Positions 43,749-58,785 of a stretch of 64,000 nucleotides of DNA are shown one piece after another (position 1 is the stretch's first letter; the number at the start of each line of letters is the position of its first letter). Where the stretch lies: the NCBI RefSeq assembly GCF_004104075.1, contig NZ_QOVK01000016.1, positions 37,035-101,034 on the forward strand, written 5' to 3'. The stretch comes from Leeuwenhoekiella polynyae (lineage in GTDB: Bacteria; Bacteroidota; Bacteroidia; Flavobacteriales; Flavobacteriaceae). The position numbers and the translations under genes were made by a program. A model generated the notes under the pieces. The model worked only from the letters and a program-made list of their open reading frames with translations, had not been told where the DNA came from and did no database searches.

Positions 43749-45236
43749 ATGAAGAAATTTTTTTGCTACTTGTTTTTAGGGCTATCTTTTACAAGTTTTG
43801 CTCAATCTGAATCTAGTCTGTCTGTTGTTGAAACAACTCCGTTTAGAGATAAGAGTCATAGTGATAAGGTTATAGCTATTAAAACTACTAAGGAAGATAT
43901 AACAGGGCTTGTTCGTCAGGGTAAAAGAGATCTTTCTTTTGATATATATGATGCGCAACATCAAAATGTTTTTTCAGAAGTTGTCAAAATTCATAAAAAG
44001 GAAAAATACATTGGTGACGTATTTTATGAGAATGAATTAAAAATAATCACTGTTCTAAAAGTTAATCGAAATGATCGGGAAGTCTATTGTCATAACTTCA
44101 ATTTAAAAACAAAAACGCTAGATAAACAGTTGTTGTTTAAGAGCAGTGTAGATAGAAAGCAAGAGCTATTCTATGTTAGTAATAAGAGGCAAACTAGTGT
44201 GGCAATCTCACCTAACGGTAAATACATAGCTATTGCTACAGACGATTATAACAAAAACACAAACTCCTACACCATACGTCAGTTTGATACTGAAACTTTA
44301 GCGTTGAATTTTAAAAGATCATATCAAAATGATAACGATCGTTATTTTGAGCCAAATGATATTTTTGTAGATAATGAAGCAGCGGTTTATGTTGTGGGTA
44401 AATTTTTTAAAGAAGGGCGTGCTCAAAAAAGAAAAAAAGAGGCAAATTATGAGTTTATCCTGAATAAAATAACCTCTCAAGAAAGTCAAAAGTTAGTTAT
44501 AGCTCTAGAGGATGAATTTGTGCAGTCGCTAAATATTTCTAATAAAGAGGATCAATTGTTTTTAATTGGTTTTTATTCAGAACGTAGAGCACGACGTATA
44601 AAAGGTAGCTGTAATTTTACAATAAATAAATCTAGTTTTGATTTAGTTTCTAAAAGTAAAGATCCGCTACCAGTAGTTGTATATGAGGATTTATTTGGGG
44701 ACGATAAGGGAAAAGATAAAAGTGAGAAAGAGCTTTCTAATTTTACTATAGATCACTTCTTAAACGATGCTAACGGAAATATATATATTCTAGCCGAGGA
44801 ATTTTATATAAGTTCAAACTACGTATCGACTGGTATGGCAGGAGGTATGATGGTAACTACACCGCATTATGATAATATTATTATTCTTAAATACGACAGT
44901 GATGGTAAGTTGCTATGGGGAAGAAGTATTTTTAAACGTTCCACAATTCCATCATATAATGCTTTTGTGAAAGATGATAAGCTCCATGTATTATTGAATT
45001 CTGGCAAAAATCTTTCAGAAAAAGATGACGGGCGTACCAAAGCCTCAAAGGGTTGGTTTGAATCATCATCTTTATATGATTTTGAATATGATACTGAAGG
45101 AAATGTATCTTATAATAAAATTCAGGATAACAAGGGGTCAACTAAATATTACCCACATAACGGAACTTATGAAAATAATACCTTTTTGATGATGGGTGGT
45201 GCCCTTAATCAACGTCAGTTTATGATCTTGAAATAA
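43749..45236 (+). CDS. secreted protein of unknown function
   Basis: A 495-residue protein with a signal peptide ending TSFAQ. I do not recognise a family. The body is rich in short beta-strand segments spaced like propeller blades (TSVAISPNGKYIAIATDDY, IFVDNEAAVYVVGKFF, NIIILKYDSDGKLLWGRSIF), so a beta-propeller-like fold is plausible. It has many lysines and few cysteines (two). It is a single gene with a terminator on each side and is AT-rich relative to era. TAGTATTG at 43709-43716 is a one-mismatch -7 candidate. Confidence 0.8.
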   Translation: MKKFFCYLFLGLSFTSFAQSESSLSVVETTPFRDKSHSDKVIAIKTTKEDITGLVRQGKRDLSFDIYDAQHQNVFSEVVKIHKKEKYIGDVFYENELKIITVLKVNRNDREVYCHNFNLKTKTLDKQLLFKSSVDRKQELFYVSNKRQTSVAISPNGKYIAIATDDYNKNTNSYTIRQFDTETLALNFKRSYQNDNDRYFEPNDIFVDNEAAVYVVGKFFKEGRAQKRKKEANYEFILNKITSQESQKLVIALEDEFVQSLNISNKEDQLFLIGFYSERRARRIKGSCNFTINKSSFDLVSKSKDPLPVVVYEDLFGDDKGKDKSEKELSNFTIDHFLNDANGNIYILAEEFYISSNYVSTGMAGGMMVTTPHYDNIIILKYDSDGKLLWGRSIFKRSTIPSYNAFVKDDKLHVLLNSGKNLSEKDDGRTKASKGWFESSSLYDFEYDTEGNVSYNKIQDNKGSTKYYPHNGTYENNTFLMMGGALNQRQFMILK

Positions 45237-45250
45237 GTAACTATTTATAA

Positions 45251-45283
45251 TTAATAAAGCCCCGCAATGCGGGGCTTTATTAA
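45251..45283. terminator. bidirectional terminator between convergent genes
   Basis: TTAATAAAGCCCCGC-aat-GCGGGGCTTTATTAA, a perfect 15-bp stem with a 3-base loop and AT-rich flanks, serves the unknown secreted gene on the left and the arsenosugar operon on the right. Confidence 0.92.
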
Positions 45284-45288
45284 TTTTC

Positions 45289-45314
45289 GCCTCCGGCTGC
45301 TAGGCGGAGCCGGT
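45289..45314. repeat. GC-rich fold-back touching the arsM stop
   Basis: CCGGCT...AGCCGG with CGCCTCCG/CGGAG-type extensions forms a compact GC-rich inverted repeat that runs up to the arsM stop codon. It resembles the other GC-rich intergenic palindromes in this window. Confidence 0.45.
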
Positions 45315-46282
45315 TAGCAACAGCCACCGCCATCGTAGTGAAACGTGCTCTCACTGATAAAAATATCATCACGACCTAAAGCAGCTAGCGCCCCTGCAGT
45401 TTTATCACAAACCGCAAGCGGTTGGTTTTTGACCAGAACGTGCCCTTTATTATCATCAAAATGATTTTCAGAACCGTAATAAATCGCGGCTTTACCGGTG
45501 AAAATACATGGCCCATCTTCCGGCATCGGGTCTTTTATGGCAGCTACCTCAATAGATTCAATATAGATGAGTTCATCTGTTGGGTAGTGTTTGGGATCGA
45601 GAATACGGTAGGGTTTGCGGGCACGTATTTCAATCGTTCCAAAACCAGCATCGGTTAATGCTTTTACATATTCTTTTATGGGTAAGCTTCCGCTGAGACA
45701 CAGCGCACGCAAGCGCTCATCGTTACGCAAAGTTTCGTTCATTTCCTGCTCACATGTAGGGTCACTCATAACCAACCTTCCGTGAGGTTTTAAAACACGG
45801 TACATTTCATCAATAGCTTTCTTGAGTTCTTCGGTCTTAAAAATATTGAACAGGCAATTTTGTGCAGCCACATCAATACTGTTATCCTCAACAGGAAGAC
45901 TCAAAGCATCTCCTTTTTTGAGGTCTACAAACTCACTCTTAAACCAGGGGTTTACCGCTTCGGCTTCAATAAAATTTTTACGCGAAGCTTCCAGCATTTC
46001 GTCAACGACATCCACACCGATGACACCGTTTTTTTGACGGGAGAAATAGGCGAACTGTAAAAGTTCCATTCCTCCGCCGGCACCTACATATAAAATACGC
46101 GGATTGTTAGTAAGATCCCGGGCATTAACAGTGCTTCCACAACCGTAATTCATCTCCTGCATAATTTTTGGGATTTTTAAACCCGGTAATTCCCAGATCG
46201 GGTTGGTGGTGCAGCATAAACCCACATCTGGAGTTAAAGCGGCATCGCGATACACATTTTTGGTAGTCTCTAAATAGCTCAT
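45314..46282 (-). CDS. arsM: arsenosugar-type arsenite S-adenosylmethionine methyltransferase ArsM
   Basis: Methylates arsenite with SAM, giving mono- and dimethylarsenicals. The ATG at 46282 is chosen because SYLETTKNVYRDAALTPDVG is the typical start of this subgroup; a longer frame from 46315 adds 11 unlikely residues. A cysteine pair comes early (VGLCCTTNP). SAM motif I is LYVGAGGGMELLQF, motif II is GVDVVDEMLEAS, and cysteines lie in AQNCLFNIF and DPTCEQEM. The chain ends GGGCC, a second cysteine pair. This subgroup is tied to arsenosugar loci rather than to arsR/arsC detoxification operons. It is the last gene of the leftward arsenosugar run. Confidence 0.9.
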   Translation of the reverse strand: MSYLETTKNVYRDAALTPDVGLCCTTNPIWELPGLKIPKIMQEMNYGCGSTVNARDLTNNPRILYVGAGGGMELLQFAYFSRQKNGVIGVDVVDEMLEASRKNFIEAEAVNPWFKSEFVDLKKGDALSLPVEDNSIDVAAQNCLFNIFKTEELKKAIDEMYRVLKPHGRLVMSDPTCEQEMNETLRNDERLRALCLSGSLPIKEYVKALTDAGFGTIEIRARKPYRILDPKHYPTDELIYIESIEVAAIKDPMPEDGPCIFTGKAAIYYGSENHFDDNKGHVLVKNQPLAVCDKTAGALAALGRDDIFISESTFHYDGGGCC

Positions 46283-46331
46283 AAATACATGTTTTATGGA
46301 AACGGCCGAAACCATCCCGGGTTAAAAATTT

Positions 46332-47213
46332 TTATAATTGAATACCGAAGCCCTGCAGTCCGCTCTCGTAAGGCGGCAAAATCTCGGTATTATCCCATAT
46401 TCCTGTGATTAGCGTACGGGCATATTCTTGTGGTAAAAAGTCGATTTGCATCCTGGCATTTGCCAGTTTGTAATTGTACTCCATCTGATGATGTTTAAAA
46501 TGGAAGGTTTCCATCGAGTCATCAAGAACCGCGTACCAAACTTGAGGCGAACCGTCATTTGCCGGCATCCCGATCACGCCGGGATTGAGCCATATTTTTT
46601 CTTCCTTTTCCTGATGAAAGGGCAATCCGCAATGGCCGGCAATAACTACATCAGCATTTGTTGCATCAAAGTTGGTTTGTTTGATGTGCCACTCGGTTGA
46701 CTTATATATAAATTCGGAAACGTTGAAATAGTCACCGTGAACTACTGTAATGTCTTTTCCCGCAAAGCGGAAGTCAATATGATTGGGTAACGTGGCTATA
46801 AAATCAAGTGAACTTTTGCTCAGTTTGCTCTGTGCATACGGAAACCACAGCTGCGAAAAGCCATCGCATCGCGATCCTTTTCTAAAGTCACAGCCACAAT
46901 CTTCAGCCCCGTCCCGTAACTGGATTTCCACATTCCCCAAAATGCTTTTTGCACCCCAGATCTTAAAGAGCTGAACCGCTTCTTCAGGCTGCGCACAATA
47001 GCCTACAATATCACCCGTACAGATGCAATTTTCGGGCGGAATGCGTTGTTCTTCGGCTATACGCTTGAGTTGTTCTAATGCCTGAAGATTGCTATACACG
47101 CCACCAAACAACAACACTTTTCCGCTTAGCGAACCCAGATTTACGCGATTTTCGCCATTTGAATGCTTTGAAGCCTGGCTTGTCTCAAGGTTATTTACCA
47201 CAGTTTTATCCAT
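46332..47213 (-). CDS. divergent metallophosphoesterase of the arsenosugar locus
   Basis: A calcineurin-like metallophosphoesterase fold of about 293 residues; the ATG at 47213 removes most of the overlap with the symporter gene. The usual GDxHGN motif reads LFGGVYSNLQAL (both metal ligands changed, at residues 38 and 40). GDxxGY is kept as CTGDIVGYC, GNH(D/E) reads LGNVE, VVHGD is kept, and GHxH reads GHCG. Several metal ligands are therefore altered, which suggests a different metal site or substrate. Its place between ArsM and the symporter points to removing phosphate from an arsenosugar intermediate, or to a non-catalytic role; both are inference. Confidence 0.82.
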   Translation of the reverse strand: MDKTVVNNLETSQASKHSNGENRVNLGSLSGKVLLFGGVYSNLQALEQLKRIAEEQRIPPENCICTGDIVGYCAQPEEAVQLFKIWGAKSILGNVEIQLRDGAEDCGCDFRKGSRCDGFSQLWFPYAQSKLSKSSLDFIATLPNHIDFRFAGKDITVVHGDYFNVSEFIYKSTEWHIKQTNFDATNADVVIAGHCGLPFHQEKEEKIWLNPGVIGMPANDGSPQVWYAVLDDSMETFHFKHHQMEYNYKLANARMQIDFLPQEYARTLITGIWDNTEILPPYESGLQGFGIQL

Positions 47214-48532
47214 GCCGGAATCATATATAAAATTAAACACGAAAATATGCCCCAAATATTCACCCAAAGCAGGTCTGCATACGGGCCGCTGGTTAAAATC
47301 CAGGAACTTGGGATGAGGTCAAAAATCAATAAAAAACCAAAAGCGATTCCGCAGAAAATGCTCAGGTAAAAACTGATTTTAGGTGCCGGTAATTTCCAGA
47401 AAAAGAAAATAGGCGTAAGGCCGATAACCATTGTTCCGGAGATGGTGGTTGCTGATAAAATTTCAGCATCCAGAAAAATAGGTACGGTTCCTAAGACGAC
47501 CAGAACACACATTGCAATTCTACCAACTGAAATGCTTTCGCCCAGTTTTAAATCAATAGCAGCCAACTTAGAAAACGATGAAAACGTAGAATCTAAAGTT
47601 GATGCCGCTGAAGTGATCATAATAAAATTAATGATGAGTAAAATCACGGTTCCAAAGGCTTTACCCACTTCTACAGCCGCCTGTCCTTGCATTCCCATAG
47701 TTTTAGCATAAACGCCAATCACACTAAATAAAATGATACAAGCCCCACCGAGAACAGTGGCTAGAAGAAAGCTGCTTAAGGTGACTTTTGGGGAACTTAA
47801 AAATGCCCGATCTGTCAAAACCGGGTCATGAAAAGGATAGCTAAAGGATTGCAAAAGTGCTGCAAAAAGCAGGTTTAAGCCCATATCAAAACTCCAAATC
47901 CCACTGTTTACCGTTTGCTCAACTGTGAAATTTGTAGTCGAATAAATACTCGCTAAAACCACAAATAGCAAAATCCCGAATAACCCCATCTGAATTACAT
48001 CGGTAAAGATCGAACTGCCGAGTCCGCCTTTTAAAGAGTAGGCCAGGGTAAGTAACGTAAACACGATTATGGAAGCATAATAGGGGGTGCTGCCCAGATC
48101 CCCAAAATAACTACCGATTACCATTGTGTTACTCCAAACCTCGTTAAAGAGTCGTATTGCGATTAAAACGGAGAAGATGCGCATCGCGTTTTTACCAAAT
48201 CGTGAGGTAAAAAACTCATGTAAACTTTCATAACCACCCCGCGTGCGAATGTTATAAATCAAGATCCCGGCGATTGCAAAAGACAGGTAATAGCCTGCAT
48301 AAGCAACCCCACCTACGATACCAAATTCTAATCCTAAATTTGCAGCATTGGTGATGCTTTTTGCAAAAATCCAGGAGATAATGAGACTACCCGTAAGCAT
48401 AAACACATTGGGTGCTTTTTTACGGTGTGTAGCTTTGAAGAAGTCACTTTTAGTTTTGGCCAATGGCGAAATAACAAACAGTATCAAACTTGATACGCTT
48501 ATTAAACCCCATTGCCAGATTGCTATATTCAA
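47195..48532 (-). CDS. sodium:solute symporter family protein
   Basis: An inner membrane transporter of the SSS family, 445 residues and about 12-13 membrane segments. The block AYSLKGGLGSSIFTDVIQMGL is the family signature around the sodium site, with TSAASTLDSTFSSFSKLAA corresponding to the conserved SSS segment in the later helices. Its substrate cannot be told from sequence. It overlaps the metallophosphoesterase by 19 bases and follows the SusD gene by 25, so it is firmly part of the arsenosugar operon and could carry the compound that the SusC/SusD pair brings through the outer membrane. Confidence 0.88.
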   Translation of the reverse strand: MNIAIWQWGLISVSSLILFVISPLAKTKSDFFKATHRKKAPNVFMLTGSLIISWIFAKSITNAANLGLEFGIVGGVAYAGYYLSFAIAGILIYNIRTRGGYESLHEFFTSRFGKNAMRIFSVLIAIRLFNEVWSNTMVIGSYFGDLGSTPYYASIIVFTLLTLAYSLKGGLGSSIFTDVIQMGLFGILLFVVLASIYSTTNFTVEQTVNSGIWSFDMGLNLLFAALLQSFSYPFHDPVLTDRAFLSSPKVTLSSFLLATVLGGACIILFSVIGVYAKTMGMQGQAAVEVGKAFGTVILLIINFIMITSAASTLDSTFSSFSKLAAIDLKLGESISVGRIAMCVLVVLGTVPIFLDAEILSATTISGTMVIGLTPIFFFWKLPAPKISFYLSIFCGIAFGFLLIFDLIPSSWILTSGPYADLLWVNIWGIFSCLILYMIPAWIKLW

Positions 48533-48557
48533 TGTTAGTTGTTTATAAATTCAAAAA

Positions 48558-50000
48558 TTAATTATCCCACCATACCGGTGCATTCAGACTGTTATCATTT
48601 GTCGCTGCTGCCGCAGCTTGATAGTTGTCTGCATTCAGCGCTTGTTCTTCTGCAGGATAAGGCATACGTAAAGGGATAAGGCCATCATTTAAACTCGCAG
48701 CAACCGGTTTAAATTCCGGGAATCCCGTGCGACGCCATTCTACCCAACCTTCATAGCCGTTGATGATATTGGCAATCCATTTTTGGGTAATGATTTGTTG
48801 CAGTGGCGTGGTGCCTGCTGCGTTATATGCTGCAGTACCGGTCAAATAATCAGCCGGTAATTCGGTGAGCCAATACTCAAAAGCCAGTTGAACACCTGTA
48901 TTGTATAAGGTTTCTGCGTCTGCTGAGATATATCCTTTTGCTGCTGCTTCTGCAAGAATAAATTGTGTTTCCCAGGCCGTCATAAAATTAGCGTCTAGTT
49001 GAGATGTGTTTTCTCTAAAAAGCGTTCCCGCAAGGGAATAGTTTGCGGGTTCAATAGAAGTTTGCGAGGCGTTTATCCCGTTGATCAATCCGTTAAATGC
49101 TCCTGAAGTAGAGTTTGCAAATGGCCTGAAGAAAACAGCGATACGCGGGTCATCAAGATCGGTTAAGATTTCTTCCATGGTTTCAGAAAGTACAAAGTTG
49201 TTGAAATCTCCTGCCCGCAATTGCGCAAAGCGGAAACTATTAGGAGCCGAATTTGTAAAATCAAAAACCGCATTGTCTGAATTGTTACTGATGTAATTTC
49301 CGGCAGCAAAAATGGAAGCGATTTCACCTGCCACATCTTCCCGACTTGAAATGCGCATCAAAGCTTTCAGCTTTAACGAATTTGCAAACTGAACCCAATT
49401 GGCTAAGTCTCCGTTAAAAAGCAAATCTCCTTCTAAAGCTACGGCACCGTCGTATGCGTTGAGTGCAGCAATACCTTGATCCAGATTATCCAGAATTCCG
49501 CCTTCGGCGAGATAGATATCTTCTTGCGCGTCATAAGCTGCGGTAACTGTTCCGTTAATACCATCAAAAGCTTCAAAATAGGGGACATCGCCAAAAAGAT
49601 CCGTCAGGCCTTGTGCCATGTAGGCTTTTAAAATCAATGCGGGGCCTTCATAAACTTTAAAGGTCTCGCTGCTTTGAGCCTGTTGCAGCAGCAGTTCATT
49701 ATTCCGAAGATTGGTGTAAAAAATGGGCCAGGGATTTCCGCCCAATTGTGGGGATTTTAGCGCGTGACGATCAAATAAATTAAAATCTAATGCGGTGCGG
49801 TGCTGGGATAACAAATCGCCGGCGGCAAAACCTTCATAACTCATTTGCTCCCCAAAATCATAGATCACCTGCCGAAGCAACAATCCCGGCTGTACGCTTA
49901 CCGGCGCATTGGGATTGGTATTTAATTCTTCAAAATCTGCTGTACATCCGGTAAAAATAACCAGCGTTACCATCAGTATTTTATATAGTGTGTTTTTCAT
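48558..50000 (-). CDS. SusD/RagB-like outer membrane lipoprotein
   Basis: A surface lipoprotein of 480 residues with lipobox IFTGC (cysteine 19) followed by the SusD-like-2 opening TADFEELNTNPNAPVSVQPG. The helical TPR-like body and the ending NAPVWWDN are normal for the family. It captures substrate for the TonB-dependent channel encoded directly upstream. Members of the SusD-like-2 group often serve substrates other than polysaccharides. It is placed within the arsenosugar gene run. Confidence 0.9.
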   Translation of the reverse strand: MKNTLYKILMVTLVIFTGCTADFEELNTNPNAPVSVQPGLLLRQVIYDFGEQMSYEGFAAGDLLSQHRTALDFNLFDRHALKSPQLGGNPWPIFYTNLRNNELLLQQAQSSETFKVYEGPALILKAYMAQGLTDLFGDVPYFEAFDGINGTVTAAYDAQEDIYLAEGGILDNLDQGIAALNAYDGAVALEGDLLFNGDLANWVQFANSLKLKALMRISSREDVAGEIASIFAAGNYISNNSDNAVFDFTNSAPNSFRFAQLRAGDFNNFVLSETMEEILTDLDDPRIAVFFRPFANSTSGAFNGLINGINASQTSIEPANYSLAGTLFRENTSQLDANFMTAWETQFILAEAAAKGYISADAETLYNTGVQLAFEYWLTELPADYLTGTAAYNAAGTTPLQQIITQKWIANIINGYEGWVEWRRTGFPEFKPVAASLNDGLIPLRMPYPAEEQALNADNYQAAAAATNDNSLNAPVWWDN

Positions 50001-50031
50001 CTTTTTAAACGTTTAGATAGTCTTTAAGGCT

Positions 50032-53000
50032 TTAGAAATTAAAGCCCGCTTTTAAACCAATGCTACGCGTAGTCGCATAACTCATATCTTCAACACCGCT
50101 AACAAAACCGGTTCCCTGAACCGCGAGTTGCTCAGGATCAAAATGTGGAATCTCGGAGAACGCAAACAGATTGCGACCCACAAGTGCCAGATCGATGTCC
50201 ATACCGTTAGATAAGCCTAAAAAGCCATCTTTTAGATTGAAGGTGTAGCCCACAGAAAATTGGCGCAGCTTCAAAAAGGAAGCGTCATAAATATTATTTT
50301 CTTCGTGGTTGCGATCGTAAAACTGACGGTAATAGGTTTCTGCTGAAACTGCCGTAGTATTGGGTTCGTATTGCGGATTTGCAGCAGTGCCTATATTTAC
50401 AACTCCTTGTGGAATTATACCTGCTGCAGGGCGATTAGCGGTTTCTGCAAGCTGGCCGCCAACGGTTCCTAATGCACGGGTACGCGAAACGAGTTCGCCA
50501 CCTTGTCTCCAGTCGAATAAGAAACTCAAATTCCAGTTTTTATAATTAAAACTGTTGTTCCAACCCAACATAAAATCGGGGGTGTAATTCCCTATTTTCT
50601 TTAGATTATTATCTGCGATATAGCTCCCGTCTGCGGTTAAAATAAATTGACCGTCTTCGGTTTTTTGATACCCGGTTCCGTAGATATCCCCAATTTTCCC
50701 GCCTTCTTCAACCTGAAACCAAACCGTTTGATTGGCGCTATCATAGATTCGGCTGTAAGCCAGAGTCAGTCTTCCGTCAGACTGCGGTAAGCTTTCTACC
50801 CGTGAAGTGCTGGTGCTGAAATTAAAGGTGGTATTCCATTTAAAATTACCAGTCAAAACCGGTGTCATAGCTGCGATTAGCTCAACCCCCTGGGTACGAA
50901 CTTCACCGCCATTCACCACCTGCTGATTGTAACCTGAAGAAATCGCGATAGGCAAGGAGATGATCTGATCTTTAGTCAACGCATTGTAATAAGTTGCATC
51001 GAGGCGAATGCGGTCTTTTAAAAACCGAATATCTGCTCCTACTTCATAAGAAGTGGTTTGCTCCGGTTTTAAATTGGCATTCGGGATAAAATTTTGATTA
51101 CTGAACGTAGGTTGTCCGTTATACGAAGTCTGAGAAATAAACGCGCCACTGGTTTGATAGGGCTGCGTGTCGTTACCCACCTGCGCCACACTTGCACGAA
51201 GTTGCGCATACGAGAACGCTTTCGGTAATTTGGTGACTTCAGAAAGGATAAAACTAGCAGAAGCCGAAGGATAAAAGAATGAAGTACCGTCAACCGAAAA
51301 TGGGGTTGCCAGAGCACTCGACCAGTCGTTACGTCCGGTTAGATCCAGAAATAGAAACCCGCGGTAGCCTAGTTTTGCAATTCCGTAGAACGAATTGATA
51401 CGTTTGTTTGATTCAAATTGAAACACATCAATAGGCGATGCGGCATTATTCAGATTGAAAATTCCCGGTTGCGCAAGATTGACGGTTTGCGATTGTTTTG
51501 TTGATGCTTTTTGATCCAGACGGTTTCCACCTAAAGAAACATCTAAAGAAATAGCACCAAAGATGTTTTTGTAATTGACTAGGAAATCGGTGTTGATCTC
51601 TCGATAAAACACATCGTGCTCGGCGTAGCCTCCATTTTTAAAACGGTTAGAACTGAAAGCCCGGCGTAACTTTCGGGTCTCGCTGGAATAATCCATCCCG
51701 GAGCGAAGTGATATGCTCAGGTTGTCTGTAATTTCTTGTTTGATCGACATATTCCCGAAAACACGATCCCGGTTAAACGAGTTGCGGTTTTCGTACATCG
51801 TAAAAAACGGATTGTCGAAATACGTGTAATTAAAAGAATAGTGCTGTACACCTTCAAGACCCGGTTGCCAGTATTGACGCAAACTGTTTATGTCTAGCGA
51901 GCGCGGTCCCCATGCCACTAGTGCATAATTCACATTTTCACTACCGTACCCATTAGAAGGGCGGTTGTCGCTCCCCGAATTTACATAGCTTATTGAGGCA
52001 TTAAATGTTGTTTTGTCGGTTGGCTTAAAGTTCAGTTTTGTAGCTAGAGTCTGCCGATCGAGATTGACACCTGGAATGATAGCTTCGCTACGCAGATCGG
52101 TAAATGAAATGCGGTAGTTTCCTTTGTCAAAACTACTGCCGATAGCCACATTGTTTATTGTGGTGACTCCGGTCTCGTAAAAATCCTTCAGATTATTGGG
52201 ATGTGAATTGAAGGCTGTAGGGGTGATGGTGTTCCCTGAATATAACGAAGTGTCACCACCGCGAACTACAGTTCCATCGGCTAAAGTTACTGGTGAATCA
52301 AACTGAGCGATTAAGGTACCTTGATCGAGACGTGGTCCCCAGGAATAGGAGATAAGGTCATTAATCCCTCCGCCTAAACCGTCAACAAATTCAAATTGCC
52401 CCGAATTTCCCTGACCGTATTGATTTTGAAATTCCGGGAGTTTAAAAGGTGTATCTATAAACAGGGAAGTATTGATGCTAATGCCCAGCCCTTTACGTTG
52501 ACTTCCGTTTTTGGTTTCAATAATAATAACCCCATTTGAGGCACGCGTACCGTATAGTGCAGCAGCACTGGGGCCTTTTAAAACACTTACCGAAGCGATA
52601 TCATCAGGATTCACTTCCATCGCGCCATTACCAAAATCGATCTCTTGAAAACCGGCTGCAGCTTCGTTACTTTCGTTAAAAACAGTGTTGTTATTAATGG
52701 GCGTTCCATCAACGATAAACAACGGATTGTTGTTAGAAAATGAAGCTTCTCCACGTATGGTGATTTTTGAAGAAGATCCTACTCCGGTCGCACCCTGAGA
52801 CACCGTTACACCGGCAAGCTTTCCGGCAAGATTATCCAGAAAGTTGGGAGCTTTTACTGCTGAAACTTCTTCGGCCTCTATGGTTTGTACCACATAGCCC
52901 AGCTCTTTGGTTTCGCGTTCGAGACCTAAAGCTGTGATGACGACTTCATCTAAATCTGTAGTCGATTCTTGTAGGCTGATATTAATGGTAGTTTGCCCGT

Positions 53001-53247
53001 TAATCGCGATAGTCTGGGTACTAAATCCTATTGCCGAAAAGCGCAGTTGAGATCCTGTTTCAGGCACTTCGATTTGATAGTTTCCGTTTTCATCGGTGAT
53101 TGTTGCAGCATCTGTGCCCACAGCAATAACGTTCACAAACGGAACGGTCGAGTCATCATTTGATGTGGTTACGGTACCGGTAATAGTAGTCTGGCCGTTT
53201 GCAAATGCATAAAGCAAGAGCATAAGCCCAAGATAAAGGTGTTTCAT
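50032..53247 (-). CDS. SusC/RagA-type TonB-dependent outer membrane channel
   Basis: A 1071-residue TonB-dependent receptor. A signal peptide ends ANGQ, followed by a carboxypeptidase-like regulatory domain (about 20-95, TTITGTVTTSNDDSTVPFVN), the plug with DNLAGKLAGVTVSQGATGVG and the SusC-type ASVSVLKGPSAAALYGTRAS, and the 22-strand barrel ending in SIGLKAGFNF. Paired with the SusD protein after 31 bases. The pair sits between the DUF2064 gene and the symporter, all in the same direction. Confidence 0.93.
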   Translation of the reverse strand: MKHLYLGLMLLLYAFANGQTTITGTVTTSNDDSTVPFVNVIAVGTDAATITDENGNYQIEVPETGSQLRFSAIGFSTQTIAINGQTTINISLQESTTDLDEVVITALGLERETKELGYVVQTIEAEEVSAVKAPNFLDNLAGKLAGVTVSQGATGVGSSSKITIRGEASFSNNNPLFIVDGTPINNNTVFNESNEAAAGFQEIDFGNGAMEVNPDDIASVSVLKGPSAAALYGTRASNGVIIIETKNGSQRKGLGISINTSLFIDTPFKLPEFQNQYGQGNSGQFEFVDGLGGGINDLISYSWGPRLDQGTLIAQFDSPVTLADGTVVRGGDTSLYSGNTITPTAFNSHPNNLKDFYETGVTTINNVAIGSSFDKGNYRISFTDLRSEAIIPGVNLDRQTLATKLNFKPTDKTTFNASISYVNSGSDNRPSNGYGSENVNYALVAWGPRSLDINSLRQYWQPGLEGVQHYSFNYTYFDNPFFTMYENRNSFNRDRVFGNMSIKQEITDNLSISLRSGMDYSSETRKLRRAFSSNRFKNGGYAEHDVFYREINTDFLVNYKNIFGAISLDVSLGGNRLDQKASTKQSQTVNLAQPGIFNLNNAASPIDVFQFESNKRINSFYGIAKLGYRGFLFLDLTGRNDWSSALATPFSVDGTSFFYPSASASFILSEVTKLPKAFSYAQLRASVAQVGNDTQPYQTSGAFISQTSYNGQPTFSNQNFIPNANLKPEQTTSYEVGADIRFLKDRIRLDATYYNALTKDQIISLPIAISSGYNQQVVNGGEVRTQGVELIAAMTPVLTGNFKWNTTFNFSTSTSRVESLPQSDGRLTLAYSRIYDSANQTVWFQVEEGGKIGDIYGTGYQKTEDGQFILTADGSYIADNNLKKIGNYTPDFMLGWNNSFNYKNWNLSFLFDWRQGGELVSRTRALGTVGGQLAETANRPAAGIIPQGVVNIGTAANPQYEPNTTAVSAETYYRQFYDRNHEENNIYDASFLKLRQFSVGYTFNLKDGFLGLSNGMDIDLALVGRNLFAFSEIPHFDPEQLAVQGTGFVSGVEDMSYATTRSIGLKAGFNF

Positions 53248-53317
53248 TTTTTTGTTTCTGATTAGTAAAAGAAAGCTGCCAGATGTACAGCGAGCAGCAC
53301 GACAACTAGATTTTGTC

Positions 53318-54001
53318 TTAAATACTTAAACTAACCGGAGAACCTTTATTGTAATAAGTAAGCGAACAGACCTTCTGAAAAAAGAGGTTTTGATAATAGG
53401 AAGTTTGAAAGGCTTTCTGAACGTACTTCTTTAAAAGGTGTTGAATCTGGAATGGAAGACTTTTTTTGACTTGTAAAAGTTGCGAAATGTCTGAAGCGGT
53501 GTCCAGATCCTGAAGCGTTTCTAGAACTGCAGCTTCAATCTTTTTTGAATGAACCAGACGAATAATACTGGTCATCAAACCCTGAGTCTGCCACGGTAAT
53601 TTTAAAAAGGAAACCGGGTTGAAATGCGACTTTTTCAGCCCCATTAAGTAAAAACCACCATCTACTGACGGCCCTAAAACTAACGGGTAGGTTTTCAAAT
53701 GTTCTTCAGCCGCGATGAAATGCTTTTTAGTAAGATGCGGACTGTCATTACCTACACTGATGATCTGGTCAAACCCCAGATTGTAAATATCCTGTATCGC
53801 ATGGGTAAACCGCTCGCCAAATGTTGTTCCTCGCTGTTTTTCTTCCGAATATAAAAAATACGGCAGTCCGGTTTGTTTAACCGTCTTTAAAACCTGAGCA
53901 TTGAGCACTTCAAAAACAGAGACCGCATTGCGAAACCCTTTATCTAATGCTTCTTGCTGCGCCGAACGGGCAAAAATTAATATGGCAGTTTTCGTGTTCA
54001 A
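53318..54001 (-). CDS. DUF2064 (TIGR04282-like) glycosyltransferase-like protein, divergent copy
   Basis: A 227-residue protein of the GT-A/CofC-like group linked to arsenosugar loci. It keeps SVGNDSPHLTKKHF (the aspartate site) and GPSVDGGFYLMGL. The N-terminal nucleotide signature (PxxGxVKTRL) found in its paralogue at 56403 is absent here, where the chain reads FARSAQQEALDKGFRNAV. It therefore may not bind a sugar nucleotide in the usual way and may be a partner subunit. An unusual C-terminal extension of about 45 residues (from about 183) follows the core. It lies 20 bases after ArsS. Confidence 0.8.
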   Translation of the reverse strand: MNTKTAILIFARSAQQEALDKGFRNAVSVFEVLNAQVLKTVKQTGLPYFLYSEEKQRGTTFGERFTHAIQDIYNLGFDQIISVGNDSPHLTKKHFIAAEEHLKTYPLVLGPSVDGGFYLMGLKKSHFNPVSFLKLPWQTQGLMTSIIRLVHSKKIEAAVLETLQDLDTASDISQLLQVKKSLPFQIQHLLKKYVQKAFQTSYYQNLFFQKVCSLTYYNKGSPVSLSI

Positions 54002-54021
54002 TAAAAATGCGTGCTATTGAG

Positions 54022-55089
54022 TTAAGCAACTGTTCCCTGGCAGCTGCTTCCTGCGCCCGCAGTACAACCGTAGCAATGTTGTGAGATGATGATGTCACGA
54101 TCGTTAAGCAAATCTTCGTTGTAATCAGAAATATGCTTCACCTTACTGTTGACTTTTAAATCTAACATTTGGTTGAAATCACAATCATACAACCACCCGT
54201 CCCAACTGATCGAAATCGTATTGGTACACATCACATTTGCAACTGCAGCCGGATTGTAGGCTTCTACGAGTTGATACATATAATCCTCATAATTTTCTGA
54301 AGCGATTAAGTAATCCAGAAAACGGGCGATAGGTAAATTGGTTATGGCAAACAGGTTGTGAAACTGAATCCCAAAATCTTCCATCAGGGCTTTTTTGAAA
54401 TCTTTTTCCATTCCGGCCTGGTCAGAAGGTAAATACGCGCCATTGGGATTGTAAACCAGGTCTAAGCGCAAATCGCTATCGGGCATTCCGTAGCCTCTTT
54501 CATTCAATTCCTGCAAGGCTTTTATAGAAAGATCAAAAACACCTTCGCCGCGTTGTTTATCGGTTTTTCCTCGTGTCCAGTGCGGCATAGAGCTCACCAC
54601 GTGAACATTGTGTTTTTTAAAAAAATCAGGTAAATCGTAATATTTTTTATTCGCACGAATAATGGTAAGGTTACTGCGCACGATAAAATCTTTGATGCCA
54701 GCTTTGCTGGCTTCTTCTACAAAACGTCTGAAATGCGGATTCATCTCAGGAGCGCCACCGGTTAAATCAAGTGTGTGTGCACCTGTATTTTTAATCACTT
54801 GGAGACATTGTTCCATCGTCTCCCAGGTCATGATCTCTTTACGATCTGGACCGGCATCTACGTGACAATGCTCACAAACCTGATTACACATATACCCCAC
54901 ATTGATTTGCAGGATCTCTAGCTTTTTAGGGCGTAAGGGAAACTGATTGGTTTCCTTTATTTTTTTTGCAAATGTGGGTAATTCCCCATCAGCAAAAATA
55001 CCACCCGATAAAATCTCAAGCTGTTTATTAGCCTGAGCCAGATCATCGTGACGTTTATGAAGGGATTTTTTTGTTTTAGTTACAGACAT
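54022..55089 (-). CDS. arsS: arsenosugar biosynthesis radical SAM protein ArsS
   Basis: A radical SAM enzyme of 355 residues. Members of this family transfer the 5'-deoxyadenosyl group of SAM to dimethylarsenite, giving the precursor of arsenosugars. The cluster motif is VGYMCNQVCEHCHVDAGP (CxxxCxxC), the SAM-binding region is LDLTGGAPEMNPHFRRF, and the C-terminal cysteine-rich part has WLYDCDFNQMLDL and HCYGCTAGAGSSCQG. Some family members carry selenocysteine at the C-terminus; here the codons are ordinary cysteine and the gene ends in TAA. It is followed by a DUF2064 gene and preceded by a peroxidase-like gene. Confidence 0.92.
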   Translation of the reverse strand: MSVTKTKKSLHKRHDDLAQANKQLEILSGGIFADGELPTFAKKIKETNQFPLRPKKLEILQINVGYMCNQVCEHCHVDAGPDRKEIMTWETMEQCLQVIKNTGAHTLDLTGGAPEMNPHFRRFVEEASKAGIKDFIVRSNLTIIRANKKYYDLPDFFKKHNVHVVSSMPHWTRGKTDKQRGEGVFDLSIKALQELNERGYGMPDSDLRLDLVYNPNGAYLPSDQAGMEKDFKKALMEDFGIQFHNLFAITNLPIARFLDYLIASENYEDYMYQLVEAYNPAAVANVMCTNTISISWDGWLYDCDFNQMLDLKVNSKVKHISDYNEDLLNDRDIIISQHCYGCTAGAGSSCQGTVA

Positions 55090-55156
55090 ACAGTATTTTT
55101 TTCTTTTTCAGCAGTGACTAAGATAAGGTTTAGTTAATGAAACAGTTAGCTAAGGC

Positions 55157-55492
55157 TTACATTTCTAACTTATTAACCTTATTCATCATCATGGTACCAT
55201 GTACCAAAGTCGCGCCGCTTTTAATAGCAGCACCTACGTGAATTGCTTCCATCATTTGCTCTTTTGTAACTCCGCGTTGTAAGGTGTCTTTAGTATAGGC
55301 ATCGATGCAATAGGGACATTGCTCGGTATGCGCAACAGCGAGTGCTATAAGCGCTTTCTCGCGAGCGGTAAGAGCTCCTTCTTCAAAAACTTTTCCGTAG
55401 TAATCAAAGAATTTTGTGCCTAGTTCTTCACTCCATTCGGTGATTTTACCAAATTTTCTAAGGTCTGCGGGATCGTAATAATTATTAGCCAT
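55157..55492 (-). CDS. peroxidase-like AhpD-fold protein of the arsenosugar locus
   Basis: A 111-residue carboxymuconolactone-decarboxylase/AhpD-fold protein. The redox pair is in HTEQCPYCIDAYTKD, and the helix AREKALIALAVA before it is typical of the fold. Proteins of this type recur beside ArsS and ArsM. A thiol-redox role keeping arsenic trivalent or reducing an enzyme is likely but unproved. It is probably the first gene of the ArsS sub-operon: the 90 bases upstream contain an 18-bp palindrome. Confidence 0.88.
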   Translation of the reverse strand: MANNYYDPADLRKFGKITEWSEELGTKFFDYYGKVFEEGALTAREKALIALAVAHTEQCPYCIDAYTKDTLQRGVTKEQMMEAIHVGAAIKSGATLVHGTMMMNKVNKLEM

Positions 55493-55524
55493 TTTGTTTT
55501 TTATTTCGAGTTATTCAATATTCA

Positions 55525-55542
55525 TAACTACATGAGTAGTTA
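55525..55542. promoter_or_regulatory. 18-bp palindrome before the ArsS sub-operon
   Basis: TAACTAC-atga-GTAGTTA, a perfect 7-bp inverted repeat in the 90-base gap between the phosphorylase and the peroxidase-like gene. On the minus strand it lies just downstream of TACTTTAC (55561-55554), a partial -7 match, so it would sit over the transcription start. It is a good candidate for a repressor site. No regulator is encoded nearby. Confidence 0.5.
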
Positions 55543-55582
55543 CGGAGATTTGTAAAGTATGGTTTTTATAAGACTGAAAATC

Positions 55583-56395
55583 CTAAAGTTTTTCGATGAG
55601 TTGTGTAAAAAGCAGTACCATATTCGGTTCGGCTAGTGCAGCAGCATCCATAATATCCTGAATGTTTACCGGCTCCAGATTCTCAGGGTCACACTCGTCT
55701 GTAATTACCGAAACGGCAGCAACAGGCAGATCGAGGTGATTGGCTACAATAACTTCCGGAACGGTACTCATCCCCACTGTGTCAGAACCTATTATCTTTA
55801 AGAAGCGATATTCAGCGCGGGTTTCCAACTGAGGTCCTACCACAGATGTATAAACACCTTCGTGTAACGTGATGTTATTTTCTAGAGCGATTTCTTTTAA
55901 AATATTCCGCATAGGTACATCATAGGGTTCACTCATATCAGTGAAACGAGAGCCTAATTGCTCAACCCCTTTAAATGCTAAAGGAGAGCCGCCCTGCAAA
56001 TTGATGTGGTCTTCAATGAGCATAATTTCGCCCTTCTTAAAGTTGAGGTTGATTGCGCCGGCCGCATTACTAATGAGGAGTTTTTTGATGCCCAGTTCGT
56101 TCATAACCCGTACCGGGTAACTTACATCACGTAAGGTGTAGCCCTCGTAAATATGAAAACGCCCCTGCATCACAATGACTTTTTTTCCGCCCAGCGTACC
56201 GTAAATCAATTTTCCGGTATGGAATTCTACCGTGGCCGTAGGGAAATTAGGAATGTGATTATAACTTACCGAGCTGATGATTTCAACTTTGTCAACAAAC
56301 TGCCCAAGGCCGGTTCCTAAAATGATACCGATCTCGGGAGCTTCAAAGCCACGCGCTTTTAAGAATTGCGCAGATTCTTCAATAAATTTTTTCAT
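55583..56395 (-). CDS. purine-nucleoside phosphorylase
   Basis: A class I (trimeric) purine nucleoside phosphorylase, 270 residues. Signatures are IGIILGTGLGQF, VMQGRFHIYEGY, ISNAAGAINLNFKKGEIMLI, GPQLETRAEYRFLK and SVITDECDPENLEPVN. It phosphorolyses purine nucleosides to base and ribose 1-phosphate. In this locus it is well placed to remove adenine from the 5'-deoxy-5'-dimethylarsinoyl-adenosine made after ArsS, leaving the arsenoribose 1-phosphate; that assignment is inferred from position. It starts 7 bases after the canonical DUF2064 gene. The general salvage role cannot be excluded. Confidence 0.92.
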   Translation of the reverse strand: MKKFIEESAQFLKARGFEAPEIGIILGTGLGQFVDKVEIISSVSYNHIPNFPTATVEFHTGKLIYGTLGGKKVIVMQGRFHIYEGYTLRDVSYPVRVMNELGIKKLLISNAAGAINLNFKKGEIMLIEDHINLQGGSPLAFKGVEQLGSRFTDMSEPYDVPMRNILKEIALENNITLHEGVYTSVVGPQLETRAEYRFLKIIGSDTVGMSTVPEVIVANHLDLPVAAVSVITDECDPENLEPVNIQDIMDAAALAEPNMVLLFTQLIEKL

Positions 56396-56402
56396 AGGTT
56401 GT

Positions 56403-57083
56403 TTATTTCAAATGTTGTGGTAAAAAAGGGAAAAACGCCTCAATACCTTTTATGTCTTCGTAGTAATCTACATCATTACGGGTTTCTAGCAATTTAACAG
56501 ATTCTTCTTTCAAATCAGCAAGTGTATCGTTAAGAACGGTTTCTGTCCCCCATTCTTTATGCTGAAAGAGTTCGGGTTTAAGCACATTCATTCCCAGTAA
56601 ATAGTAGCCGCCATCTTCTGCGGGCCCTATTACAAAATTGTGATCATCCAGTGCAGCAAATGCCTGCTCAATGTCTTTTTGCGACAGGTCATACATGTCA
56701 CTGCCTATGATTATTGCTTTCTGATAGCCGCTTTTAAAAGCATCTTGAAATGCACGTTGCATACGTAAGCCCAGATCTTCACCGTGTTGTAGTTTTTTAG
56801 TAAATTTCTCTTCATCCCAAAAATCTCCAGAGCGTATTTTTTCAGAATAAAAAACCTGCTTGTCTGCACTTAAACCGCTGGTGATCTTAACGGTGTGCTG
56901 TAATAGAAATTTGTAAATGTCTAGAGCAGCTTGATCACCCACTCCGCCGGCAAGACGTGTTTTTACTTTGCCTAATTCCGGATTCCGGGTAAAAATTAAA
57001 AGAGCTTTATCTGATGTAGGGAAATGGAATTCTGCCTCGAAGTCTTTATCTTCGTTTGTGTCTTTTTTACTGAGTAGACCCAT
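56403..57083 (-). CDS. DUF2064 (TIGR04282) arsenosugar glycosyltransferase-like protein, canonical copy
   Basis: A 226-residue protein with the full family pattern: FTRNPELGKVKTRLAGGVGD (nucleotide signature), IGSDMYDLSQKDI (aspartate site) and GPAEDGGYYLLGMN. The fold resembles CofC and MobA nucleotidyl-/glycosyltransferases. The family's recurrent place in arsenosugar loci gives it its name, but the reaction has not been shown to my knowledge. The likely step is joining the arsenoribose to glycerol or another aglycone. It is followed by the phosphorylase. Confidence 0.88.
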   Translation of the reverse strand: MGLLSKKDTNEDKDFEAEFHFPTSDKALLIFTRNPELGKVKTRLAGGVGDQAALDIYKFLLQHTVKITSGLSADKQVFYSEKIRSGDFWDEEKFTKKLQHGEDLGLRMQRAFQDAFKSGYQKAIIIGSDMYDLSQKDIEQAFAALDDHNFVIGPAEDGGYYLLGMNVLKPELFQHKEWGTETVLNDTLADLKEESVKLLETRNDVDYYEDIKGIEAFFPFLPQHLK

Positions 57084-57112
57084 TAGTATTTGTTAATTGA
57101 TAATGATCAAAT

Positions 57113-57598
57113 TTAATGAACCGCAATCCCCGTTCTTAAATAATCTTCCCAATTTTTTGCAAACGTGTGTATTTTTTGGGTGGATTTACCTTTATTATCG
57201 ATCACTTCATAGCCTGCATCCTTCCAGGCGAAGATGCCGCCGTAAAGGTTGTGGAGTTGCTTTTTGCTCGTTCTATTTAATTTCTCACCATAGTCTTCAC
57301 TGCGAATGCCAACTGTACAATAGACTACTACTGGTTTTTTTGCATTCAGGATAGAATCTAAGAGTTCTTCATCAGGTTTTTCTCCCACCCAAACCGCGTT
57401 GGGAATATGACTCACATTAAACTCCGCTCTTTTGCGTGTATCTAGAATAATATAGGCTTCGGGTTGCATTTTGAGTTCTTGCACAGAGATATAAGGCACA
57501 CTGCGCGTGTTGTAAACATCGAGTAATTTGTCTATGGATTTTTTTTGACCGAAGCCACAAATTGGAATCGATAGTATGAAAATTAGTGCGAATCTCAT
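57113..57598 (-). CDS. exported rhodanese-like protein
   Basis: A 161-residue protein with a signal peptide (to about residue 18, ICGFGQ) and one rhodanese domain. The active cysteine is in VVYCTVGIRSEDYGEKL, preceded by AYIILDTRKRAEFNVSHIPN. It may carry sulfane sulfur or act on an oxyanion; rhodanese folds also occur in arsenate-reducing phosphatases. It is the first gene of the leftward arsenosugar run, 29 bases before the DUF2064 gene, so it probably belongs to the system. Its role is otherwise unknown. Confidence 0.88.
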   Translation of the reverse strand: MRFALIFILSIPICGFGQKKSIDKLLDVYNTRSVPYISVQELKMQPEAYIILDTRKRAEFNVSHIPNAVWVGEKPDEELLDSILNAKKPVVVYCTVGIRSEDYGEKLNRTSKKQLHNLYGGIFAWKDAGYEVIDNKGKSTQKIHTFAKNWEDYLRTGIAVH

Positions 57599-57699
57599 TA
57601 AGGGTTTGAGTTGTTATAGGTAGCTGTAAAACCTACGAAGAAAAACCTTTTGTGGTTTGTTTTGTAAATAAATCTCTATAATATCTGTTTTGGGTTATA

Positions 57700-58785
57700 G
57701 TGACAAAAGAGCGTGCAAATTCGGCTAGTATCCCTTCAGTATTTTATATATTTAACTTTATAAAAAACTTTCCATTGATAACAATTCAACCTTTTGATAC
57801 CACGCAAGACGGGCGCTCCGTTTCTTTAGTAATTTTAAAAAATCCATCTGGGATGGAAGCACATTTTATCACGTATGGTGCTATTTTACAACGTTTAATT
57901 GTGCCGGATGCCGGTGATTATACCGATGTGGTTTTGGGCTATAATGATCTCATTACTTACGAAAATGACACGTATTTTATGGGGCAATTGATAGGGAGAA
58001 ACGCAAATAGAATTGCGCACGCCGAAGTTGTTTTAGATGGAAAAAAAGTAGCGTTAAGTGCCAATGAAGGTACTAACCAATTGCATGGGGGCTTTGAAGG
58101 TTTTGGAAAAAAAATCTGGAATGTTGCCGAACTGGATGACGAGGTCGTTTTTAGCTATATGAGTAAGGATGGAGAAGAAGGTTTTCCGGGGAATCTGTTG
58201 ACTAAAATGTTTGTAAAACTGACCGATGCTAACGAGCTTATTATGCGTTTAGAAGCGACTACAGACCAGGAGACTATAGTTAATTTGACCCGTCACGAGT
58301 ATTTTAATCTGAATCCACACAGTGGAAAAGGTATTGCTGAACATACCCTGCAAATAAATGGTGGCGGCATATTACCTAAAAACGAAAATAACGTACCAAC
58401 TGGTAAAGTCTTGCAGGTAGAAGGTACGCCTTTTGATCTTCAGGAATCGAAAGTATTAGCAGGATCGCTATCAAAACTTGACGGAGGTTTTGACCATAAT
58501 TATGTGCTGGAAAAATACAGTGATGAGGTTCCGGCAGCTATTTTAGCAGCACCTGGCGGTTCTCCTAAGATGGAAGTCCATTGCACACAACCTGGGCTTC
58601 AGTTTTACAGTGCAGCTGGTATAGATGCTGTGCCAAATAAATACGGAGAGATACAAGGACCGTCTCCGGCACTGTGTTTAGAGCCTCAATATTTCCCCGA
58701 TTCTCCTAACCATCCTAACTTCCCGTCAACGGTTTTAAGACCTGATGCCGTTTACCGTCATGAAATACGATATAAATTCTTATAG
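57700..58785 (+). CDS. galM: aldose 1-epimerase
   Basis: Mutarotase interconverting anomers of galactose or glucose. Catalytic residues are visible: NQLHGGFEGFGKKIWN, LTRHEYFNLNPHSGKGIAEH, LDGGFDHNYVLE and the glutamate in CLEPQYFPDSPNHPNF. The start is uncertain. The GTG at 57700 adds about 25 residues that fit no known part of the fold, while the TTG at 57775 (beginning LITIQPFDTTQDG) matches the domain better. It is the first gene of the rightward sugar/glycerol unit and abuts the glycerol fusion gene. Confidence 0.9.
   Translation: MTKERANSASIPSVFYIFNFIKNFPLITIQPFDTTQDGRSVSLVILKNPSGMEAHFITYGAILQRLIVPDAGDYTDVVLGYNDLITYENDTYFMGQLIGRNANRIAHAEVVLDGKKVALSANEGTNQLHGGFEGFGKKIWNVAELDDEVVFSYMSKDGEEGFPGNLLTKMFVKLTDANELIMRLEATTDQETIVNLTRHEYFNLNPHSGKGIAEHTLQINGGGILPKNENNVPTGKVLQVEGTPFDLQESKVLAGSLSKLDGGFDHNYVLEKYSDEVPAAILAAPGGSPKMEVHCTQPGLQFYSAAGIDAVPNKYGEIQGPSPALCLEPQYFPDSPNHPNFPSTVLRPDAVYRHEIRYKFL

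What the first reader, a model, noticed from the sequence alone, without database searches (positions are those of the whole stretch)
45314..57598. Complete arsenosugar biosynthesis locus with an assignable order of steps
ArsM, ArsS, a purine nucleoside phosphorylase, two DUF2064 transferase-like proteins, a peroxidase-like AhpD protein, a metallophosphoesterase and a rhodanese lie in one leftward run of about 12 kb. ArsM and ArsS chemistry (dimethylarsenite, then 5'-deoxyadenosyl transfer) is established for the families. From gene order I infer that the phosphorylase then removes adenine, a DUF2064 protein joins or activates the arsenoribose 1-phosphate, and the phosphoesterase removes phosphate. 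No arsR, arsC, arsB or acr3 is present, so this looks anabolic rather than a resistance operon.
Basis: partly seen in the sequence, partly recalled or inferred. Interest (0 to 1): 0.85.

Follow-up and report, generated by a model that had tools for sequence, protein, structure and literature searches.

The report
Arsenosugar operon with built-in import cassette
A marine bacterium carries an eleven-gene run in which six genes related to arsenic-sugar making enclose a five-gene block resembling an uptake system, a block whose marker gene recurs almost only in relatives that have the key arsenic-sugar enzyme; the run likely makes arsenic-containing sugars, and its block is predicted to take up a small molecule of that pathway.

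Summary
In a Leeuwenhoekiella relative, eleven minus-strand genes (45314-57598) hold an arsenosugar set (rhodanese, DUF2064-A, PNP, AhpD-like, ArsS, ArsM) enclosing DUF2064-B, SusC, SusD, a sodium symporter and a phosphoesterase-fold protein. ArsM and ArsS pass their arsenosugar models. 'Complete' is wrong: the glycosyltransferase TIGR04283 lies on another contig, as does ArsC; ACR3 was not found. The inner block recurs: among 395 genomes of the class its phosphoesterase is in 13 of 66 with ArsS and 1 of 329 without, in eight families, often far from ArsS. That protein lacks three classical catalytic motifs in 80 of 80 loci, and its nearest sister family sits in arsenic-resistance operons (16 of 16 loci). 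DUF2064-B lacks the nucleotide loop; it also occurs near ArsS without SusC (7 of 10 loci), so its tie to transport is partial. Known chemistry, new transport variant; the substrate is untested.

The parts
57113..57598 (-). rhodanese-domain protein, first gene of the run
   Evidence: NF045521 180.9 bits, cut-off 145
56403..57083 (-). DUF2064-A: TIGR04282 CofC-like nucleotidyl/glycosyltransferase, LGKVKTRL loop present
   Evidence: TIGR04282 220.7 bits over cut-off; nearest solved chain 3cgx 91.7 bits
55583..56395 (-). trimeric-type purine nucleoside phosphorylase, cluster type
   Evidence: NF006054 332.8 bits; 18 of 18 ArsS+ vs 1 of 23 ArsS- genomes in the family
55157..55492 (-). AhpD-like protein TIGR04169, CPYC motif
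   Evidence: 190.3 bits; motif at residue 59
54022..55089 (-). ArsS, radical SAM, CNQVCEHC
   Evidence: TIGR04167 434.5 bits; motif at residue 68
53318..54001 (-). DUF2064-B: nucleotidyltransferase fold without the KTRL loop, first gene of the transport block
50032..53247 (-). SusC/RagA TonB-linked outer-membrane protein
   Evidence: TIGR04056 589.4 bits
48558..50000 (-). SusD-like lipoprotein
   Evidence: PF12771 316 bits
47195..48532 (-). sodium:solute symporter family protein
   Evidence: TIGR00813 45.3 bits and PF00474 19.5 bits, both below cut-off; nearest solved chain a high-affinity choline transporter, 27 bits
46332..47213 (-). degenerate metallophosphoesterase-fold protein with FGGVYSN, GNVE, DCGC, RCD, GHCG; overlaps the symporter gene by 19 bp if ATG at 47213 is the start (searched with one extra codon upstream)
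45314..46315 (-). ArsM, arsenosugar-type arsenite methyltransferase, last gene of the run
   Evidence: NF038099 570.7 bits

Best explanation
The run combines an arsenosugar-type enzyme set (ArsM, ArsS, PNP, DUF2064-A, with TIGR04283 on another contig) that likely makes arsenoribosides with a recurrent SusCD-symporter block that is predicted to import a small arsenosugar-pathway molecule, most likely an arsenoriboside. Shown here: family memberships, gene order, co-occurrence and motif losses. Inferred steps: ArsC (elsewhere) reduces arsenate; ArsM makes dimethylarsenite; ArsS adds 5'-deoxyadenosyl (established for the family, from cited work); the PNP would phosphorolyse the dimethylarsinoyl-adenosine to arsenoribose 1-phosphate and adenine; DUF2064-A would activate it with a nucleotide; TIGR04283 would move it to a glycerol-type acceptor. 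Arsenoribosides released by algae or by the cell would enter through SusC/SusD and the symporter. The phosphoesterase-fold protein, and less surely DUF2064-B, both relatives of arsenic-linked proteins that have lost catalytic signatures, would bind the ligand in the cytosol and gate or receive it rather than convert it.
For: ArsM, ArsS, TIGR04169 and TIGR04282 over curated cut-offs; TIGR04283 and ArsC elsewhere in the genome, ACR3 not found. Cluster-type PNP: 18 of 18 ArsS+ vs 1 of 23 ArsS- (Fisher 9e-11, not corrected for kinship); a second PNP besides another one in 3 of 3 ArsS+ genomes of one genus. Block: close phosphoesterase in 13 of 66 ArsS+ and 1 of 329 ArsS- genomes of the class (taken as the same draw of 395; Fisher 3e-10, same caveat), eight families. 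The order DUF2064-B, SusC, SusD, symporter, phosphoesterase stands away from ArsS in 5, and beside it in 1, of ten further loci read. In 80 named loci ArsS is in 77, the symporter in 80, DUF2064-A in 80, PNP in 78. DUF2064-B, SusC and SusD are absent together in 6 of 80, ArsS being followed by the symporter: the substrate may enter without SusCD, so it is probably small. The sister phosphoesterases sit with ars genes in 16 of 16 loci.
Against: No substrate is shown. A cell that makes arsenosugars as an end product gains nothing obvious by importing them. DUF2064-B is near ArsS without a SusC in the stretch in 7 of the 10 of 100 phylum loci that have it, so it may be a partner of the enzymes rather than of the transporter; three named Polaribacter loci have SusCD without it. 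The symporter's nearest solved relative is a choline transporter (27 bits). One ArsS- genome (G719, 840 contigs, 89% complete) has the phosphoesterase. Most ArsS+ genomes lack it (53 of 66). The PNP is the only one of its type found in this genome, so it may serve housekeeping. The Asp thought to favour adenine is in both PNP types, and 5 of 6 ArsS- PNPs read outside the family also lack the His. ArsM is near ArsS in only 23 of 100 loci. Motif loss does not exclude a new activity.
Confidence: 0.47

Rival explanations
1. The block imports the acceptor (aglycone) for arsenosugar assembly, such as glycerol, a glycerophospho-compound or an algal sulfonate, rather than an arsenical.
For: Same co-occurrence with ArsS; a weakly choline-transporter-like symporter; natural arsenosugars differ by glycerol-derived aglycones (recalled).
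Against: Both soluble block proteins resemble proteins on the arsenic side: TIGR04282 and ars-operon phosphoesterases.
Confidence: 0.2
2. The phosphoesterase-fold protein and DUF2064-B are active enzymes with altered sites: the first a one-metal or cysteine-based hydrolase or reductase of an arsenical ester, the second a transferase with another donor or a partner subunit of the arsenosugar enzymes.
For: CGC in 78 and CD in 80 of 80 loci, GNVE 80, GHCGLPF 78; GND.P in 68 of 68 and DGG[YF] in 64 of 68; GD, GN, HG and the first His of GH remain aligned with the sisters; DUF2064-B near ArsS without SusC in 7 of 10 loci.
Against: DxH, GNH[DE] and GH[TS]H patterns in 0 of 80 and the KTRL loop in 0 of 68. 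The sisters themselves have GNYD for GNH[DE].
Confidence: 0.28
3. The block is an ordinary nutrient importer whose genes only happened to lie next to ArsS in an ancestor of this family.
For: SusC/SusD pairs with symporters are common in this phylum (recalled); linkage is strongest in one family; the tests are not corrected for kinship.
Against: Co-occurrence with ArsS holds where the two are not adjacent (8 of the 11 ArsS+ genomes outside the family), over eight families, and adjacency also occurs outside the family (L056, L057, L180).
Confidence: 0.15
4. The PNP is plain housekeeping salvage that drifted into the operon.
For: Only PNP of its type found in this genome; in the 83 loci of other families no PNP hit was within about 9.5 kb of ArsS.
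Against: In one genus ArsS+ genomes carry it besides another PNP, 3 of 3; 78 of 80 named loci have it.
Confidence: 0.3

Closest known systems
Arsenosugar biosynthesis genes as named by NCBIfam (NF038099, TIGR04167, TIGR04169, TIGR04282, TIGR04283)
   Same: Four of the five families are in the run and the fifth is in the genome, all over cut-off
   Different: TIGR04283 is unlinked; a PNP and a five-gene SusCD-symporter block are added
Synechocystis ArsM/ArsS pathway (Xue 2019, Cheng 2021; seen only as cited in passages of PMC8552651 and PMC12159101)
   Same: The first two steps
   Different: No transport block is mentioned in the passages read; Xue 2019 is not held and Cheng 2021 was not sought
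Bacteroidota ars operons with ACR3 and uncharacterised metallophosphoesterases (MrMe1/MrMe2 of Mucilaginibacter gossypii P3, passages of PMC10652896)
   Same: A phosphoesterase of the same wider family travels with arsenic genes
   Different: The sister proteins keep DxH and GHTH; those here have lost both. Identity of MrMe1/2 with the sister family was not tested
SusCD uptake loci of Bacteroidota
   Same: SusC, SusD and an inner-membrane symporter-family protein in a row
   Different: None of the eleven genes is a carbohydrate-active enzyme or regulator by the scans made
VPS29 and PH1004 phosphoesterase-fold proteins
   Same: Same fold: both in the Foldseek list, PH1004 (2gju) also in the VIA-align list; VPS29 as a scaffold is recalled
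   Different: Cysteine motif and arsenic context

Membership tests
Arsenosugar biosynthesis locus | Arsenosugar-type ArsM (NF038099) | tested here: met
   570.7 bits, cut-off 400
Arsenosugar biosynthesis locus | ArsS (TIGR04167) with CxxxCxxC | tested here: met
   434.5 bits, cut-off 300; CNQVCEHC
Arsenosugar biosynthesis locus | TIGR04283 glycosyltransferase in the locus | tested here: not met
   present in the genome on another contig, 233 bits
Arsenosugar biosynthesis locus | Arsenoribosides made | not testable with these tools
   needs speciation of fed cells
TIGR04282 | DUF2064-A over the curated cut-off | tested here: met
   220.7 bits, cut-off 134
TIGR04282 | DUF2064-B over the curated cut-off | tested here: not met
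   97.1 bits; loop pattern in 0 of 68 loci, six of the frames being called short at the N-terminus
Classical two-metal metallophosphoesterase | DxH, GNH[DE] and GH[TS]H motifs (recalled) | tested here: not met
   0 of 80 loci for each pattern; alignment with sisters
Classical two-metal metallophosphoesterase | Metallophosphoesterase fold | tested here: met
ars resistance operon | ACR3 efflux gene | tested here: not met
   none in the run; none found in the genome
Trimeric purine nucleoside phosphorylase (NF006054) | Score over cut-off | tested here: met
   332.8 bits, cut-off 218; the narrower TIGR01700 just missed, 292.8 vs 293.35
Trimeric purine nucleoside phosphorylase (NF006054) | Acts on dimethylarsinoyl-adenosine | not testable with these tools
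   needs an enzyme assay
SusCD polysaccharide utilisation locus | SusC/SusD pair | tested here: met
   TIGR04056 589.4 bits, PF12771 316 bits
SusCD polysaccharide utilisation locus | Glycan-degrading enzymes in the locus | tested here: not met
   none among the eleven genes by Pfam or NCBIfam

The most novel reading that the evidence does not exclude
Bacteroidota have a dedicated arsenosugar uptake system: a TonB-dependent SusCD pair and a sodium symporter gated by two pseudo-enzymes, one descended from the arsenosugar nucleotidyltransferase and one from the phosphoesterase of arsenic-resistance operons, so that marine bacteria both make and recapture arsenic sugars.
Probability: 0.23. Interest if true: 0.85.

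Novelty: new variant of a known kind. Interest (0 to 1): 0.6.

Why it matters
I found no held paper that assigns genes to the steps after ArsS (listings; passages of three papers; most subscription papers are not held). These genomes offer a candidate for each step (PNP, TIGR04282, TIGR04283), testable in culturable marine bacteria. They also offer a candidate arsenosugar-linked transporter, for which searches found nothing relevant; it bears on who takes up the arsenosugars that algae release. The degenerate phosphoesterase and DUF2064-B look like arsenic-linked enzymes reused without their catalytic signatures.

Tried and rejected
Gene order as evidence for step order: rejected, orders differ between loci.

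One search showed it in 10 of the 100 phylum loci, 3 with SusC and 7 without SusC in the stretch fetched, so the claim was cut back, and the odds of the best and the novel reading were lowered slightly (0.50 to 0.47, 0.27 to 0.23).

PNP specificity from two residues: the first idea was Asn-to-Asp (adenine) plus His-to-Ile (no 5'-OH), by human numbering 243 and 257 (recalled). The Asp is in both PNP types. The His change separates ArsS+ (18 of 18 Ile/Val) from ArsS- (11 of 12 His) inside the family, but 5 of 6 ArsS- PNPs read outside it also lack the His (in one search the pattern read only 6 of 12 loci tried, one of them an ArsS+ class genome with Val). Kept as a weak hint.

The cysteine motif as an invention of the block: rejected, the ars-operon sisters have DCGC too; only the third cysteine (RCD) is special to the block's branch. 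Calling the sisters 'intact' was also dropped: they keep DxH and GHTH but have GNYD in the eight aligned.

The loop pattern as a sharp test: it also misses some DUF2064-A proteins (found in 51 of 80 named loci, KTR in 73 of 80; 47 and 55 of 59 in the phylum loci). In DUF2064-B: pattern 0 of 68, KTR elsewhere in the chain in 2 of 68, six frames called short at the start.

Partners by unsupervised grouping of 100 hand-chosen loci plus the window (99 of the 156 ArsS+ genomes; all 28 others of family and class included): TIGR04283-like GT in 40 of 101; in the 100, AhpD 83, DUF2064 61, ArsM 23, PNP 13, rhodanese 11, SusC/SusD/symporter/phosphoesterase 5 each.

Not followed: the GlpK-GlpD fusion next door as glycerol supplier (named). 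No RNA family in the window. Promoter/terminator scans gave nothing usable. No coordinates came with the models, so the spacing of cysteines and metal ligands could not be measured.
Full report
WHAT IS THERE. The window belongs to a 4.79 Mb genome in 47 contigs. Its closest named relatives by the phosphoesterase are Leeuwenhoekiella (L. aestuarii, 94%). Eleven genes lie on the minus strand from 57598 down to 45314: rhodanese, DUF2064-A, PNP, AhpD-like, ArsS, DUF2064-B, SusC, SusD, sodium symporter, phosphoesterase-fold protein, ArsM. Gaps are 7 to 90 bp, and the symporter and phosphoesterase genes overlap (computed with one extra codon; 19 bp with the ATG at 47213).

FAMILY TESTS. ArsM, ArsS, the AhpD-like protein and DUF2064-A pass their NCBIfam arsenosugar models, and PNP passes NF006054. 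The rhodanese passes NF045521. DUF2064-B fails TIGR04282 (97.1 bits, cut-off 134). The symporter is below the cut-offs of its families. The glycosyltransferase TIGR04283, whose relatives are the commonest partner of ArsS and DUF2064 that this run lacks (40 of 101 loci), is on another contig. ArsC is elsewhere too (128.1 bits, cut-off 106), ACR3 was not found, and the only other PF01048 protein is nearest uridine phosphorylase (88.9 bits, below cut-off). The first two chemical steps (ArsM, ArsS) are established for the families: Xue 2019 and Cheng 2021, seen only as cited in passages of PMC8552651 and PMC12159101.

THE PHOSPHORYLASE. In the family, PNPs like this one are in 18 of 18 ArsS+ genomes (14 near ArsS with the window counted, 4 elsewhere) and in 1 of 23 ArsS- genomes; 11 other ArsS- genomes have a more distant PNP and 11 have none at the threshold used. 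In one genus the three ArsS+ genomes carry it in addition to a second PNP. This is better evidence for a phosphorylase step than gene order. Residue arguments proved weak, and outside the family no PNP hit lay near ArsS in the 83 loci read.

THE BLOCK. A search with the phosphoesterase over 395 genomes of the class gave 14 close matches (285 to 691 bits), then a gap to 90 bits. ArsS over 395 genomes of the class, taken as the same draw: 66 have it. Thirteen of the 14 are among those 66; the exception is a fragmented 89%-complete genome. The 14 fall in eight families. Of ten further loci read, DUF2064-B, SusC, SusD, symporter and phosphoesterase stand in that order in six (five away from ArsS, one beside it), one has the phosphoesterase turned round, two lack DUF2064-B, and one is a 3.7 kb contig. 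Outside the family the block, or most of it, lies beside ArsS in L056, L057 (opposite strand) and L180. In a tree of 29 phosphoesterases the linked state needs four changes, of which well-supported branches force at least one. ArsS is in 77; in the other three the contig ends upstream of the match. DUF2064-B, SusC and SusD are missing together in six, where ArsS is followed by the symporter after 8 to 247 bp, and DUF2064-B alone in three. The symporter and phosphoesterase are thus the core. DUF2064-B is looser: in the 100 phylum loci it is in 10, of which 3 have SusC and 7 do not.

HOW IT MOST LIKELY WORKS. Shown: memberships, order, co-occurrence, motif loss. Inferred: arsenate to arsenite (ArsC), dimethylation (ArsM), 5'-deoxyadenosylation (ArsS), phosphorolysis (PNP), nucleotide activation (DUF2064-A), transfer to a glycerol-type acceptor (TIGR04283). 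The block would import a small molecule of this pathway, most likely an arsenoriboside, with the phosphoesterase-fold protein and perhaps DUF2064-B as cytosolic binders. The import substrate is the weakest step; an acceptor molecule, or altered enzymes rather than binders, are the main rivals.

NOVELTY. The enzyme set is known and named by NCBIfam. The PNP link and the block were not found in the paper searches made (mostly listings, passages of PMC12159101, PMC8552651 and PMC11009773). That library lacks most subscription papers, so this is no proof of novelty. I file it as a new variant of a known kind.

Noticed in passing
window 58786-61962 (+): Glycerol kinase GlpK and a glycerol-3-phosphate dehydrogenase/oxidase-like domain are fused in one 1058-aa open frame beside the run; glycerol is the usual arsenosugar aglycone (recalled), but any link is untested.
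   Followed up: partly
L157-L172: Metallophosphoesterases that keep DxH, GHTH and DCGC (with GNYD) sit with ACR3, ArsR, ArsO or an aquaporin in 16 of 16 loci, often with a DUF6428 protein.
   Followed up: yes
L190 9689-11324 (-): The unlinked TIGR04283 glycosyltransferase is next to a DUF547 protein; a group that looks like DUF547 by eye also lies near ArsS in 16 of 101 loci.
   Followed up: partly
L289, L292, L294, L295, L303, L318: DUF2064-B, SusC and SusD are absent as a unit, leaving ArsS followed by symporter and phosphoesterase.
   Followed up: yes
L036, L038, L042, L049, L050, L084, L090: A DUF2064-B-like protein without the KTRL loop lies near ArsS although no SusC is in the fetched stretch.
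   Followed up: partly
window 45150-57800: Terminator-like hairpins are more frequent than in shuffles (29 against 12.2, sd 3.0), on both strands and mostly inside genes.
   Followed up: no
L210 (G182): One genome without ArsS carries the cluster-type PNP; it may have lost ArsS or use this PNP otherwise.
   Followed up: no
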